NCBI GenBank assembly: GCA_020851635.1
Contig: JADZCJ010000037.1
Span: 1 to 64,000, forward strand
Source: Anaerolineae bacterium
Lineage (GTDB): Bacteria; Chloroflexota; Anaerolineae; UBA4142; SHND01
DNA: 64,000 bases
Reading direction: 5' to 3'
Both the position numbers and the translations under genes were made by a program. A model generated the notes under the pieces. That model did no database searches, had not been told where the DNA came from, and saw only the letters and a list, made by a program, of their open reading frames with translations. Shown piece by piece: positions 4,713-11,125 of the stretch (the first letter of the stretch is position 1; every line of letters begins with the position of its first letter).

Positions 4713-5561
4713 TCAACCCCGACTGAGAGCCGCAAGCGCTCGCAAATGATCACGCATCAGGATTGTTTCCGAAAGATTGTCCACTTCATTGCAATGCTCC
4801 CAATCAATCCACGTATATTCCACGCCCACATACCCCGAATAATTCAATTCCGACAGGCGTCGCAGGATTCGCCAATAATCAATCACATTTTCTTTCAAGG
4901 ACGCCTGAATGCGTCCCTCGCGCGCCCCGCGCGCATGAAAATGAGAAGCGTGCGCCAGCAGCGGTTCGACGCGCGCGTCGGGGATCGCCTTGCGCGCAAA
5001 ATGCGTGTAATCGAGCGTTACCGTGAGACCGGGACAAGCCGCGATCAATTCCAGCGCGCTTTCGGGAGTGTCAACGTGTGAGCCGGTGTGCGGCTCGATG
5101 GAAAAGGTCACGCCGCTCTCTGCCGCTCGCTCTGCGCGCCACCACAATTCTTCGGCGCTCCGCTTGAGCGATGTTTCGTGCGCTACGCCCTCCCATTCGA
5201 TGCCGGGCAGCGCCGTCATGTGTCGGGCATTACAACGCAGTGTAAATTCCAACATACGCAGAAATAACTCGCGTCCTCTCGCGCGCTCGTTCAGGTCAGG
5301 GTGGTTCGCGGCGACCGTTTCAAACGTGCTCGCCTGGTAAAATATGTCCGCGATCTCCAGCCCCCGTCCGGAGACCTGTCCGGCAAGCGCGCGGGCGGCG
5401 GTTGCCAGGTTGGGCAGCACGTGTTTGGGTTCAAGATGCGAACGGTCGTCAAACAATCCAATATCTACACCCTGAAAGCCGAGCATGGCAATGACGTCAA
5501 ATGTGTTTTCGTGCGGCAAAAGGGGAAACGCAAAATCCGCGCAGGCAAGTTTGAGGTTCAC
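4713..5561 (-). CDS. sugar phosphate isomerase/epimerase-like TIM-barrel protein
   Basis: Protein of 282 aa of the xylose-isomerase-like TIM-barrel (AP_endonuc_2) superfamily. Visible segments are FDVIAMLGFQGVDIGLFDD near the N terminus, a central SIEPHTGSHVDTPE, the LDYTHFARK strand, and a C-terminal GVEYTWIDWE. The Glu, Asp and His residues in these segments are the expected divalent-metal ligands. It is the first gene of the operon. The start is GTG, preceded by CAGGAGCGG. A partial MITE-like repeat lies 19 bp upstream and could carry or disrupt its promoter. Confidence 0.75.
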   Translation of the reverse strand: MNLKLACADFAFPLLPHENTFDVIAMLGFQGVDIGLFDDRSHLEPKHVLPNLATAARALAGQVSGRGLEIADIFYQASTFETVAANHPDLNERARGRELFLRMLEFTLRCNARHMTALPGIEWEGVAHETSLKRSAEELWWRAERAAESGVTFSIEPHTGSHVDTPESALELIAACPGLTVTLDYTHFARKAIPDARVEPLLAHASHFHARGAREGRIQASLKENVIDYWRILRRLSELNYSGYVGVEYTWIDWEHCNEVDNLSETILMRDHLRALAALSRG

Positions 5562-5920: not shown

Positions 5921-6757
5921 ATGTCCTACTCTGCCGAAATTAGCCGCTCGAATCCTTCTTGCTTTTTGTTTGTGATTGACCAGTCCGGCTCGATGGCGGA
6001 CCCGTTTGGCGGTCAAGCGGGGAAACGCAAGGCGGACGGCGTTGCCGACGCCCTCAACCGCCTGCTGCAAAATCTCGTCATCAAATGCGCCAAGACCGAG
6101 GGCGTCCGCGACTATTACCACATCGGCGTCATTGGCTATGGGTCCAAGGTGGGTCCTGCGTTCCTCGGCGCTTTGGCGGCAAGACAACTCGTCCCGATCA
6201 GCCAGGTTGCCGAAAACCCGGCGCGCATCGAAGAGCGCAGCAAAAAAACGGATGATGGCGCGGGCGGACTGGTCGAGCATCAAGTCAAATTTCCCATCTG
6301 GATCGAACCGGTTGCCCACCAAGGCACGCCCATGCGCCAAGCCATGGCCATGGCGCAAGAAATCCTCAATGGATTCGTCGCCGCGCATCCCGACTCGTTC
6401 CCGCCTATCGTCATTCACATCACCGACGGCGAGTCCACCGATGGCGACCCGACCGAGGCAATGCGAAACGTGACAAACATTCAGACCTCGGACGGCAATG
6501 TCTTGCTGTTCAACATTCATCTTTCGAGCAAGGCGGCGCAGCCCATCGCTTACCCCAACGCGTCCGATGGCTTGCCCGATGAGTACGCCAAACTGCTCTT
6601 TGACACCGCGAGCGAGTTGACGCCCTTTATGCAGAGCATCGCCCAAGAACAAGGGTTGGATCCCCAGCCGGGAGCGCGCGGCTTTGTCTTTAATGGCGAT
6701 CTTGCGCTCGTGATTCAATCGCTCGACATCGGAACGCGCCCCAGCAATTTGCGCTAA
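5921..6757 (+). CDS. TerY-like von Willebrand factor A (vWA) protein
   Basis: Protein of 278 aa that is essentially one vWA domain. The metal-ion-dependent adhesion site is intact: D20-Q-S22-G-S24 (VIDQSGSM), the Thr in HQGTPMRQAM, and the Asp in HITDGESTDGD. No signal peptide or membrane helix is seen, so it should be cytoplasmic. It is the first gene of a plus-strand group followed by a PP2C phosphatase and a kinase with an HhH domain, the gene set known as the TerY-P triad. By analogy it is a scaffold or sensor whose ligand binding is controlled by phosphorylation. A terminator follows 24 bp after the stop, so the next genes may be expressed at a lower level or separately. There is no clear Shine-Dalgarno. 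Confidence 0.8.
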   Translation: MSYSAEISRSNPSCFLFVIDQSGSMADPFGGQAGKRKADGVADALNRLLQNLVIKCAKTEGVRDYYHIGVIGYGSKVGPAFLGALAARQLVPISQVAENPARIEERSKKTDDGAGGLVEHQVKFPIWIEPVAHQGTPMRQAMAMAQEILNGFVAAHPDSFPPIVIHITDGESTDGDPTEAMRNVTNIQTSDGNVLLFNIHLSSKAAQPIAYPNASDGLPDEYAKLLFDTASELTPFMQSIAQEQGLDPQPGARGFVFNGDLALVIQSLDIGTRPSNLR

Positions 6758-6780
6758 CTCGACGATTTGCGTACCATTTC

Positions 6781-6823
6781 AACAGGTGCCCGTCGCCGTG
6801 AGGCGCCGCGCACCTGTTTTTTT
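6781..6823 (+). terminator. rho-independent terminator after the vWA gene
   Basis: AACAGGTGC (6781-6789) pairs perfectly with GCACCTGTT (6810-6818) and is followed by a run of T to 6823. It lies 24 bp after the vWA stop. It overlaps the longest reading frame of the phosphatase, which argues that the phosphatase starts downstream. Confidence 0.85.
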
Positions 6824-6944
6824 GCAAGCGCAAGGGACACATCGCAAAAATGCTTTGGCAAACACGCGTTTGTTCGGCGCTCGCTCGGAATTTGACGCCG
6901 GCGTCATCCGAAATCCATTTTTGAGATGCGTCGAGGGCGATTCG

Positions 6945-7769
6945 TTGAGACCTTTTACCACCGACATCTTTTGGCTCCCCAAGGCGGGTAACACCACCGC
7001 CGAATATGAGGACGCGCATTTCGTCGGCAAATGGAAAAAGCGTTTCACGCAGCCCCGGGCGCGTCTTGCGCTTGCCATAGCCGACGGCGCGACCGAAGGT
7101 ATGCTCAGCCGTCAATGGGCAAACTTGCTGGTGAGGCGTTACGTGCGGCACTTGCCGGGACCCGAACATCTCGAGGATTGGTTGAGCGGCACCTTGCGCG
7201 CCTGGCAATATGAAAAGGGTCATTACCTGCAGCAGCGTGAGCGGAACAACAAGCCCGTGCAGTGGTATGAAGAACCGGGGCTGGAAGCGGGAGCGTTTGC
7301 CGCGCTCCTCGGTCTCGTGTTCGATGTCAGAGACGCAGAACGTGACGGGACGCGCCGCGGCTTGCTGAGCTGGCAAGCCGTTTCAATCGGCGATTGCTTT
7401 TTGGTCCAGGAGCGCAACGGAGACTGCAGCTGCATGTTTCCCTTTGACGAGTCGTCCGCGTTAAACAATCGTCCGTATTTGCTTTCCAGTAATCCCGCGC
7501 GCAATCGCGGTATCGCCGAACGGTTCATGTTTGCTGCAGGCAAAGCATCCGCAGGCGACCGCTTTTACTTGATGACCGACGCGCTCGCAGGATGGTTCTT
7601 GCGCGAGTGTGAACGGGGCGCGGCGCCGTGGCTCGTGTTGGATTCGTTTCGCGGCGCGGGCGCAGACCCTGAATTTGTGGAATGGATCGAGACGCTGCGC
7701 GTGGCGCGCGAAATTCGCAATGATGATGTGACCTTGGTCCGTCTTGAAGTTCCCGAACTAGCAGATTGA
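6945..7769 (+). CDS. PP2C-like serine/threonine protein phosphatase (TerY-P triad)
   Basis: Protein of 274 aa from the preferred TTG start. The PP2C-type motifs are ADGATEG (metal-binding Asp, early), SIGDCFLV (central), LMTDALAGWFL and the terminal NDDVTLV. The frame is open back to 6786, but that extension would cross a strong terminator. The TTG at 6945 has GAGGG 7 nt upstream and gives a start at LRPFTTDIFWLPKAG, so it is preferred. The gene sits between the vWA gene and the kinase (51 bp before it). The expected role is dephosphorylating substrates of the partner kinase. No membrane segments are seen. Confidence 0.75.
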   Translation: MRPFTTDIFWLPKAGNTTAEYEDAHFVGKWKKRFTQPRARLALAIADGATEGMLSRQWANLLVRRYVRHLPGPEHLEDWLSGTLRAWQYEKGHYLQQRERNNKPVQWYEEPGLEAGAFAALLGLVFDVRDAERDGTRRGLLSWQAVSIGDCFLVQERNGDCSCMFPFDESSALNNRPYLLSSNPARNRGIAERFMFAAGKASAGDRFYLMTDALAGWFLRECERGAAPWLVLDSFRGAGADPEFVEWIETLRVAREIRNDDVTLVRLEVPELAD

Positions 7770-7820
7770 TAGCAAAACCGTGCGCCTCTTTCCGGCGCAC
7801 ATCCCGAGAGGTTGCCTGCC

Positions 7821-9968
7821 GTGTGGTGGCCCAGTCCTTCTGATTATCAAGATACCGTCCAGAATCCGCGCATCGCCTTTTCCGATCCCGCGCTCCGCGA
7901 CGGCGCGGTCGTGAGCGATGCGCTCGGGCTGCCAAAACCGATTTCGGGAAGTTTCGCGACGGTCTATCAGGTGGACCACGGCGGACGCCGTTATGCTGTC
8001 CGCTGTTTCCTGCGGCATGTGCCCGATATTGCCCAGCGCTACTCCGCCATCAGCGCGTATCTCGGGCAAGTTTCCCTCCCCTATACCGTCGAGTTTCAAT
8101 TTCTCACCCGGGGCATTCGTCTGCGCGGGCAGTGGTTCCCAATCCTCAAAATGGACTGGCTCGAGGGCGAGCGACTCGATGTCTATGTCGCGCGCAACCT
8201 GAACGACCCGACCGCGCTCCTCCAGTTGACGCGCCGGTTCATCGAACTTGCATTTGCGCTCCGACAAGCCGGCATCGCGCACGGCGACCTGCAGCACGGC
8301 AACCTTCTCGTCGTAAATAACAAACTCCGCCTGCTCGATTACGACGGCATGTTTGTGCCCTCGCTCCGCGGGCGCGCGAGCAATGAGGTGGGTCAACCCA
8401 ATTATCAACATCCCATTCGGGCTGCGCGCGATTACGGTCCGCATCTCGACAATTTTTCCGTGTGGGTGATTGCGCTTTCGCTGTTGGGGCTTGCGCTCGA
8501 ACCCGGGTTGCGTTCGGATTTCAACGTCGGTAGTGAGGCGCTGCTGCTGGAGCGTTCCGATTTCGTCAATCCTTCCGCTTCCAAAACTCTGACAACGCTT
8601 CAACAATCCAACAACCCGACCCTCCGCTATCTGACCCTCACATTCGTGCCCTATCTCTTTGCGCGCGACCTCAACTCGATTCCCGCGTTGGAACCAAACG
8701 CCATTGACCGGATGCAGACGGTGGTGGCGGCACAGCCCAGCTTGCCTGATTGGCTGCGTGACAGTGTTCCGGCTGCGCCTGCCGCGACCCCATCACAGGT
8801 CCCCGCGCCGAACGCACAATTGGGCGCGGGCTGGCTGCTCGATCATCTCGAATCCGCCGCCCCCGGCCGTCTCAGCGGGTCATTCCGCGCGGAAAAATCC
8901 CTGCTCGCCCTTGTCGCCCTGCTCTTGCTCGCGCTGGTCGTCGTCATGTTGATGGGTCCCGCCGTACCGCCGACGCTGGGTCTCGCTCTCCTCATCGTTC
9001 TGCCGATAACGACGGTGCTGGCGCTGAGCTTTGGTTTTTCTTTGCGGTACAACAGCCCTGAACGCCGCGACGCCGCCCGCTCTGTGCAGGACTTGATCGA
9101 GTCATCCGCAGACTTGCAGCGTCGCGAGTCCGCCCTCGCATATACATTGACCGGCATGGCACGCGCCGAACAGGACGAAATGGCAATGTTGGTCAAGCAG
9201 CAGACTGCGAACATAAATCAAGAAAAAACGGGACTGGCTGCCCTGGACCAGTCCCTGAATACTGAATTGGCAAAACTACAGGCGCGCCAAAAGGAACTCG
9301 CCGATAAAAAAAGCGCTCTCTTTGAGAGCGCCCTTAAACAGATGCAAAAGGAGCAGTTGGAGCGTAAACTGGAATCGTACCGCGTTTCGGACGCGCTCAT
9401 TCCCGGCATCCTCAGCCGAGAGCTCAAACAAGCGCTTGCGCGGCATGGCTTTATCACCGCAGCGGACATTACAAACTTTCGGGTCAACGTGCTGAACGCG
9501 ACCAAGCGGTTCAGTCTCATCAACCGCCAGGGCGTGGCAGTCTATGTGGAGGGGGTCACACCAAAACACGGTGTGGCGCTGATCTTGTGGCGTCGGACCG
9601 TCGAAGCGCGTGCCAAAGGCGCGCTTGCAACGAGCTTGCCCACAGATACGGCAACCCGGTTGGGCAAACGGTTTCAGGACGAGCTTGTTACTCTCAAACT
9701 GGCGGAAATCAAAGCCAAACAACAAACTCAAAAGAGCCGGGAGCAGCTCACCGAAAGCACGCGCAGAGAGCACGAGCGTCTAACGCGCGCCATGCAAGAG
9801 CTTCCCGCCAACTACCGCAACAAACGGCAGCTGACGGAACAAGAACTGAACCGCGTGCGCCAGGCAATTGCAGAACGCAAATGGGCGCTCGATCTCGCGC
9901 GCCGCCGCCTCCACTCCTTTGCCCATATAAACTTTTTCAATTACCTGCGATCCATCTTTGGGCTATAA
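7821..9968 (+). CDS. YegI-like protein kinase with two membrane helices, coiled coil and helix-hairpin-helix domain (TerY-P triad)
   Basis: Protein of 715 aa. The N-terminal kinase fold has GSFATVYQV (glycine-rich loop), AVRCF (~59-63), the catalytic HGDLQHGN (~154-161) and DYDG (~173). The usual ATP-anchoring Lys is Arg in AVRCF. Residues ~355-410 form two adjacent membrane helices. Residues ~415-520 are strongly charged and predicted coiled coil. Residues ~520-560 read as a helix-hairpin-helix (IPGILSRELKQALARHGFI), as in the kinase of the TerY-P triad. The GTG start at 7821 has GAGAGG 9 nt upstream; the alternative TTG at 7812 abuts that motif and is unlikely. Its neighbours are the vWA and PP2C genes. 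The HhH suggests a DNA- or protein-binding tail; the function is inferred from the family. Confidence 0.8.
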   Translation: MWWPSPSDYQDTVQNPRIAFSDPALRDGAVVSDALGLPKPISGSFATVYQVDHGGRRYAVRCFLRHVPDIAQRYSAISAYLGQVSLPYTVEFQFLTRGIRLRGQWFPILKMDWLEGERLDVYVARNLNDPTALLQLTRRFIELAFALRQAGIAHGDLQHGNLLVVNNKLRLLDYDGMFVPSLRGRASNEVGQPNYQHPIRAARDYGPHLDNFSVWVIALSLLGLALEPGLRSDFNVGSEALLLERSDFVNPSASKTLTTLQQSNNPTLRYLTLTFVPYLFARDLNSIPALEPNAIDRMQTVVAAQPSLPDWLRDSVPAAPAATPSQVPAPNAQLGAGWLLDHLESAAPGRLSGSFRAEKSLLALVALLLLALVVVMLMGPAVPPTLGLALLIVLPITTVLALSFGFSLRYNSPERRDAARSVQDLIESSADLQRRESALAYTLTGMARAEQDEMAMLVKQQTANINQEKTGLAALDQSLNTELAKLQARQKELADKKSALFESALKQMQKEQLERKLESYRVSDALIPGILSRELKQALARHGFITAADITNFRVNVLNATKRFSLINRQGVAVYVEGVTPKHGVALILWRRTVEARAKGALATSLPTDTATRLGKRFQDELVTLKLAEIKAKQQTQKSREQLTESTRREHERLTRAMQELPANYRNKRQLTEQELNRVRQAIAERKWALDLARRRLHSFAHINFFNYLRSIFGL
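9306..9331 (-). terminator. antisense intrinsic terminator inside the kinase gene
   Basis: On the minus strand, GCGCTCTC AAA GAGAGCGC is followed by seven T. This is a perfect 8-bp stem with a T-tract inside the kinase coding sequence, on the opposite strand. No minus-strand gene ends here, so it would stop antisense transcription. It may be a by-product of coding KKSALFESALK. Confidence 0.5.
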
Positions 9969-10036
9969 GGCATCTGTTTCGGACGGATTGTCGCGCGAGC
10001 GATTGACCAAGCGAATTGCAATGGAGGGTCCGACAA

Positions 10037-11125
10037 GTGCAACGGAACAGAATCATTCTAATCCTTGGGGTGATTATCGGGCTTGCAGTTTCGCTTGCCC
10101 TGATCCGGTACGCCTATTCCGTTCCTGAAATCGGTTTTTCAGAGTATATCCCGCCTACGTCGGACACCCAGCGCGCCAAGACGCTGTGGGATTGGCTCGA
10201 GTTGCTCATTGTTCCCGCAGTCCTCGCTGCCGCCGCCATTTTGTTCAATGCCGGTGAACGTCGCCGTGAGCAAAAAAGCGCCGACCAACGCGACAAAACT
10301 TCTCGAGAGATCGCCGATGAGAACCGGCGACAAACTCTGCTTCAATCCTACCTCGACAAAATTACCGAACTGCTGCTTGAACAGAACCTGCAAGACCCCG
10401 CCGCTCCGAGAGCAGTCCGGACCATCGCGCGCGCCCATACCCTCGCCGTGCTTCGCGTCTTGGACCCCAAGCGCAAAGCAGCCGTCTTGCAATTCCTCTA
10501 CGACTCGGAGCTGATTGCGCGCAATCAAAAGAGTGTTGATCTTGGGGGGGCAAATTTCAGTTTTATTGACTTTGATCCGTCGTCGCAATCAATACCCCGA
10601 AATCTCTCGAATATTGATTTGAGCGGCGCCATTCTCACAGGGGCGCAATCGTCCGGACTGGATTTGAGCTCTGCCAATCTAAGCGACTCGGTGTTGTGGC
10701 TGGCAGACCTGGAGCGCACGCGCTTAGTAGGGGCAGACCTGCGAAACGCAAACCTCATGGCAGCCCAATTGGTTTCTGCAGACCTGAGCGCGGCAAATCT
10801 TGCCGGCGCAAACTTGCAGAGCGCAAACCTGACGCGCGCAAAATTGGATGGAGCCATTCTTCGGGGCGCAAATCTCCAGCGAATCTCATCCCTCTTGCCT
10901 CAAGCAATGGAAATCACAATGTCTCTGCCAAACCTGAACGAAAACGCCGCCCGGCAGATCGGCAGCAAGACCGCCGTGGCAGCAATGGTCGCTCCCACAA
11001 GCTTTTTGAGCGCCCTCTCGCAAGTCGCCACACTGGCGGATGCGACCATGCCTGATGGGCGCAAATGGGAGGGGAAAGCGGAGGGTCCCTACTCGATTCA
11101 AGACCTGGCGCCCTATTTTTCCTGA
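10037..11125 (+). CDS. membrane-anchored pentapeptide-repeat protein
   Basis: Protein of 362 aa from the GTG at 10037, which has GGAGGG 8 nt upstream; the upstream TTG at 10016 has none. A hydrophobic helix at the N terminus (IILILGVIIGLAVSLALI) and a second at ~55-75 (LLIVPAVLAAAAILF) are followed by a charged helical region. Residues ~175-290 are pentapeptide repeats of the A(D/N)Lxx type (ANLSD, ADLRN, ANLMA, ADLSA, ANLAG, ANLQS, ANLTR). These fold as a right-handed quadrilateral beta-helix. It follows the kinase by 68 bp on the same strand and may be a partner or output of the triad. Its function is unknown. Confidence 0.75.
   Translation: MQRNRIILILGVIIGLAVSLALIRYAYSVPEIGFSEYIPPTSDTQRAKTLWDWLELLIVPAVLAAAAILFNAGERRREQKSADQRDKTSREIADENRRQTLLQSYLDKITELLLEQNLQDPAAPRAVRTIARAHTLAVLRVLDPKRKAAVLQFLYDSELIARNQKSVDLGGANFSFIDFDPSSQSIPRNLSNIDLSGAILTGAQSSGLDLSSANLSDSVLWLADLERTRLVGADLRNANLMAAQLVSADLSAANLAGANLQSANLTRAKLDGAILRGANLQRISSLLPQAMEITMSLPNLNENAARQIGSKTAVAAMVAPTSFLSALSQVATLADATMPDGRKWEGKAEGPYSIQDLAPYFS

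What the first reader, a model, noticed from the sequence alone, without database searches (positions are those of the whole stretch)
5921..11125. TerY-P signalling triad with an added membrane pentapeptide-repeat protein
vWA, PP2C and a kinase with HhH match the gene set called the TerY-P triad, which comparative genomics links to stress or DNA-related responses. The kinase here is membrane-anchored with a coiled coil, and a membrane pentapeptide-repeat protein follows on the same strand. This would be a four-component variant. The output and the ligand are unknown.
Basis: partly seen in the sequence, partly recalled or inferred. Interest (0 to 1): 0.6.

Follow-up and report, generated by a model that had tools for sequence, protein, structure and literature searches.

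The report
TerY-P triad; pentapeptide gene unrelated neighbour
Three neighbouring genes form a known kind of bacterial protein-phosphorylation switch, relatives of which protect against phages, while the fourth gene proposed as a new part sits beside it only in this one genome of those examined and is probably an unrelated neighbour.

Summary
The triad is real. Window 5921-9968 (+) encodes a TerY-type vWA protein, a PP2C phosphatase and a Ser/Thr-kinase-like protein; all three match PADLOC's TerY, PP2C and STK_OB models, the set reported as the TerY-P antiphage system. The kinase has a TM hairpin, coiled coil, degenerate tandem HhH and a second coiled coil instead of an OB fold or zinc ribbon. 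That architecture recurs in several Chloroflexota, so it is a branch trait, not a local oddity. In 32 other Chloroflexota genomes with a linked TerY-PP2C-STK set, and 8 further kinase loci, no pentapeptide gene lies within the surveyed flanks (up to about 8 kb); two same-genus orthologues are followed by an aminotransferase gene. The pentapeptide family occurs in 24 of 400 Chloroflexota; seven genomes have both gene types, never adjacent. Side results: a hairpin in the TerY-PP2C gap is conserved in the three same-genus loci; the VAIK Lys is Arg in nearly every kinase of the family. Verdict: a member of a known kind with an incidental neighbour.

The parts
5921..6757 (+). TerY-type vWA protein, 278 aa, MIDAS motif D-x-S-x-S / T / D present (VIDQSGSM, HQGTPM, HITDGES)
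   Evidence: Pfam VWA 2.1e-6; PADLOC TerY 9e-109 over the full length; 82-83% identical to same-genus orthologues
6781..6823 (+). RNA hairpin followed by a T run in the TerY-PP2C gap; possible attenuator or processing site
   Evidence: z -3.3, 0 of 200 shuffles as stable; hairpin at the same place in G004 and G002, core shared; the core sequence occurs once in the genome
6945..7769 (+). PP2C-type phosphatase, about 274 aa (start codon inferred); metal-site motifs EDAHF, ADGAT, TDALA, DDVTL readable
   Evidence: PADLOC PP2C 4.9e-26; Pfam PP2C_2 2.2e-4, below the cut-off; 53% identical to same-genus orthologues
7821..9968 (+). TerY-P kinase, 715 aa: kinase domain about 1-290 (HGDLQHGN, DYDG; VAIK Lys is Arg, AVRCF), TM hairpin about 355-410, coiled coil 413-519, degenerate (HhH)2 about 525-600, coiled coil 608-713
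   Evidence: PADLOC STK_OB 3.6e-78 on residues 6-293 only; alignment and hydropathy; AlphaFold2 pLDDT 90.7 for residues 413-715
10037..11125 (+). Pentapeptide-repeat protein, 362 aa, with hydrophobic N-terminus; judged a separate gene that merely follows the triad
   Evidence: Pfam Pentapeptide 1.5e-23; no PADLOC match; no homologue beside any other triad examined

Best explanation
Window 5921-9968 is a TerY-P phosphorylation triad of the Chloroflexota branch whose kinase is membrane-anchored, most likely an antiphage or stress-signalling cassette. Shown by sequence: a metal-binding-type vWA protein, a PP2C phosphatase, and a kinase-like protein whose kinase domain and coiled-coil arm lie on the same side of the membrane if the TM hairpin spans it twice, with an HhH-derived head between two coiled-coil helices. 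Inferred: the arm and head sense an infection- or DNA-related event near the membrane; the kinase then modifies TerY, itself or a host target; PP2C keeps it off or resets it; the hairpin after terY lowers PP2C and kinase expression relative to TerY. The pentapeptide gene is not part of the system: it belongs to a widespread family of membrane pentapeptide proteins and sits downstream by local rearrangement, though it may be co-transcribed in this genome. The confidence given is for the triad identity and the incidental pentapeptide gene together; antiphage function alone is put at about 0.55.
For: Three full PADLOC TerY-P component matches, also in same-genus G004. Linked TerY-PP2C-STK in 32 other Chloroflexota genomes and on two cyanobacterial plasmids. 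No pentapeptide gene beside any of 40 other kinase loci, about 36 of them with at least 1.4 kb visible downstream. Pentapeptide family in 24 of 400 phylum genomes; in the seven genomes with both gene types the two lie on different contigs or at least 80 kb apart. Several other pentapeptide-repeat genes in the same genome. The kinase architecture recurs in G002, G004, G017 and G282 and in shorter form in G122, G101 and G113. Patchy presence (3 of 6 genomes of the genus) and a different site in the window genome fit a mobile cassette. Antiphage activity of TerY-P: PMC7699616, PMC10889362.
Against: No function is shown for this locus or for any TerY-P with this kinase type. The C-terminal region differs from the tested antiphage form (OB fold). 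The VAIK Lys-to-Arg change and the degenerate HhH motifs leave kinase activity and DNA binding open. Neighbours in the window are not defence genes. Only 68 bp and no clear terminator separate the kinase and pentapeptide genes, so co-transcription is possible.
Confidence: 0.8

Rival explanations
1. A four-component variant: the membrane pentapeptide protein is the output or scaffold of the triad.
For: Same strand, 68 bp gap, own ribosome-binding site, both proteins predicted membrane-associated.
Against: Absent beside 40 other kinase loci, including same-genus orthologues 57-59% identical in the kinase; its family members elsewhere are not next to a triad.
Confidence: 0.06
2. The triad is a metal or envelope stress signalling switch unrelated to phages, as TerY-P was first proposed from comparative genomics.
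For: TerY MIDAS motif; membrane kinase; no defence genes next to it; in same-genus genomes the flanking genes are a penicillin-binding-protein-like gene and an aminotransferase-like gene.
Against: Patchy distribution and variable site are more typical of defence cassettes; relatives are reported as antiphage (PMC7699616, PMC10889362).
Confidence: 0.3
3. The kinase is a pseudokinase or non-canonical phosphotransferase, and the triad signals by binding and conformational change.
For: VAIK Lys is Arg in 17 of 18 aligned Chloroflexota kinases and in both cyanobacterial plasmid kinases; Pkinase scores lie below Pfam's cut-off.
Against: Catalytic-loop HGDLQHGN and DYDG are conserved, and a PP2C with metal-site motifs is nearly always alongside, which suggests that phosphate is transferred.
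Confidence: 0.15

Closest known systems
TerY-P triad as a stand-alone antiphage system (Gao et al. 2020; PADLOC TerY, PP2C, STK_OB)
   Same: All three components, gene order and strand; TerY matches over its full length; the kinase domain matches
   Different: The kinase C-terminal half is TM hairpin, coiled coil, degenerate (HhH)2, coiled coil instead of an OB fold; the STK_OB match stops at model position 290 of 562
[quoted passage not shown] PMC11090510)
   Same: vWA, PP2C and kinase set
   Different: No zinc-ribbon match, and no CnuH/CnuE or McrBC-like genes recognised among the neighbours read here
Ktedonobacterial-type TerY-P loci with double-GTPase and GAP1 genes (for example L097)
   Same: TerY, PP2C, STK order
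   Different: Long 1020-aa kinase, followed by DO-GTPase2 and GAP1-domain genes, absent here
Membrane pentapeptide-repeat proteins of Chloroflexota (for example in G218, G405, G210)
   Same: N-terminal region 45-47% identical to the window protein, then pentapeptide repeats
   Different: Not beside a TerY-P triad

Membership tests
TerY-P triad | TerY-like vWA protein with MIDAS motif | tested here: met
   PADLOC TerY 9e-109; motif read in the sequence
TerY-P triad | PP2C phosphatase gene in the set | tested here: met
   PADLOC PP2C 4.9e-26
TerY-P triad | Ser/Thr-kinase-like gene in the set, linked on one strand | tested here: met
   PADLOC STK_OB 3.6e-78 on the kinase domain; order conserved in relatives
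TerY-P antiphage subtype (STK_OB) | C-terminal OB fold on the kinase | tested here: not met
   The model match covers positions 3-290 of 562; the AlphaFold2 model of residues 413-715 is two long helices with a small head
TerY-P antiphage system | Protection against phages | not testable with these tools
   Reported for relatives in PMC7699616 and PMC10889362 only
TerY-P of CoCoNuT systems | Zinc-ribbon kinase next to CoCoNuT genes | tested here: not met
   No zinc-ribbon match; the adjacent genes scanned are a TIM-barrel gene and a TPR gene
Four-component TerY-P plus pentapeptide system | Pentapeptide gene conserved beside the triad | tested here: not met
   0 of 40 other kinase loci

The most novel reading that the evidence does not exclude
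A membrane-tethered TerY-P subtype in which a coiled-coil arm with an HhH head senses DNA arriving at the membrane, built on a kinase with a family-wide Lys-to-Arg change, with terY expression set apart by a conserved attenuator hairpin.
Probability: 0.15. Interest if true: 0.5.

Novelty: new member of a known kind. Interest (0 to 1): 0.2.

Why it matters
It settles a tempting but wrong reading: adjacency in one genome had suggested a new partner. What remains useful is a compact set of Chloroflexota TerY-P loci with a membrane-anchored kinase, which asks whether the antiphage function needs the OB fold and whether the TerY-P kinase, with Arg at the VAIK position, is catalytically active.

Tried and rejected
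Pentapeptide gene as fourth component: rejected by the neighbourhood survey. PDB sequence searches: vWA and PP2C gave nothing, the kinase only weak eukaryotic kinase matches. Fold searches of the C-terminal region gave only generic coiled coils such as SMC arms and chemoreceptors, so no family can be named from them. The AlphaFold2 kinase domain was poor with four sequences, so the Arg position rests on motif alignment. Empty-site test for the window insertion was inconclusive: the upstream flank gene had no match in the five same-genus genomes searched, the downstream one in only one.

Full report
Observation. Reading the window and scanning the proteins confirms four genes on the + strand: a vWA protein (5921-6757), a PP2C phosphatase (ending 7769), a kinase-like protein (7821-9968) and a pentapeptide-repeat protein (10037-11125). 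The PP2C start is probably TTG 6945, because the same-genus orthologues begin at the matching place; the longest ORF starts inside an intergenic hairpin. PADLOC models for TerY (9e-109), PP2C (4.9e-26) and STK_OB (3.6e-78) all match; the pentapeptide protein matches none.

The kinase. Only residues 6-293 match STK_OB, positions 3-290 of 562. The rest is a hydrophobic hairpin (about 355-410), a long helix (413-519), a small head (about 525-600) and a second long helix (608-713); AlphaFold2 gives mean pLDDT 90.7 for 413-715. Comparison with G282, where Pfam HHH_5 scores 5e-4 (under its cut-off), identifies the head as a tandem HhH with an insertion; in the window genus the second Gly of each hairpin is lost. 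The same layout occurs in G002, G004, G017 and G282, and shorter versions in G122, G101 and G113. The VAIK Lys is Arg (A-V/L/I-R-C-F/L) in 17 of 18 Chloroflexota kinases aligned and in the Calothrix and Acaryochloris plasmid kinases, while HGD...N and DYD are kept in nearly all.

Neighbourhood test. A search of 99 relatives, then of 400 Chloroflexota genomes, gave kinase loci whose surroundings were fetched and compared by tblastn. Of 40 loci besides the window, 35 have TerY nearby and 32 have all three genes; G346 has them in another order. None has a pentapeptide relative within the flanks fetched, up to about 8 kb. In four loci the contig ends close downstream of the kinase (G157, G315, G131, G376), so about 36 are informative on that side. 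In the same-genus genomes G004 and G002 the next gene is a class IV aminotransferase-like gene (named by eye from the sequence). Triads on two cyanobacterial plasmids also lack it.

The reverse test. The N-terminal region of the pentapeptide protein finds relatives in 24 of 400 Chloroflexota genomes, the window genome included. Four such loci were read in full and have no triad. Seven genomes (G118, G145, G202, G218, G405, G412, G436) have both a TerY-P kinase and a relative of the pentapeptide protein, on different contigs or at least about 80 kb apart. The window genome carries several other pentapeptide-repeat genes, so one next to any cassette is not remarkable.

Site. In G004 and G002 the triad lies between a penicillin-binding-protein-like gene and the aminotransferase-like gene. 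In G005 and G003 that interval holds other genes, and in the window genome the two flanking genes end separate contigs while the triad is elsewhere. Three of six genomes of the genus have the kinase (the G003 hit is an unlinked ordinary kinase). This patchiness fits a mobile cassette but does not prove defence.

Hairpin. The TerY-PP2C gap folds into a strong hairpin followed by T residues in the window genome (z -3.3); G004 and G002 have hairpins of the same core at the same place. The core sequence occurs once in the window genome. A partial terminator that favours TerY is the simplest reading; it is untested.

Literature. TerY-P is described as vWA, PP2C and kinase, with a zinc ribbon in CoCoNuT loci and an OB fold in stand-alone antiphage systems (PMC11090510). 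PMC7699616 summarises activity against T7-like phages, and PMC10889362 reports protection against Autographiviridae in P. aeruginosa. The primary papers (Anantharaman 2012, Gao 2020) were not available (for Gao), so whether the HhH kinase form was described there could not be checked.

Conclusion. The triad is a member of a known kind with a branch-specific kinase tail. The pentapeptide gene is an incidental neighbour with high probability.

Noticed in passing
window 6781-6823; L015 about 5109-5145; L016 about 6348-6385: Conserved hairpin with T-rich tail between terY and the PP2C gene in three same-genus genomes; unique sequence in the window genome. G017 has an unrelated strong hairpin in the same gap.
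   Followed up: partly
window about 7995-8009 (AVRCF) and aligned kinases: The VAIK lysine of the TerY-P kinase is arginine in nearly all Chloroflexota and both cyanobacterial plasmid kinases, while other catalytic motifs are kept.
   Followed up: partly
L097, L098, L132, L136: Ktedonobacterial-type TerY-P loci with a 1020-aa kinase followed by two further genes on the same strand; in L097 these match DO-GTPase2 and GAP1 domains. A conserved extension, unlike the pentapeptide gene.
   Followed up: partly
L015, L016, L154, L155: The interval between a penicillin-binding-protein-like gene and an aminotransferase-like gene is variable in this genus: TerY-P in two genomes, a SurE-like gene in one, a 2679-aa ORF with sensor-like neighbours in another.
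   Followed up: partly
L131, L133, L134, L138: TerY-P loci with a long PP2C protein (720-780 aa) and a further gene after the kinase whose L131 copy has helical, apolipoprotein-like Pfam matches.
   Followed up: no
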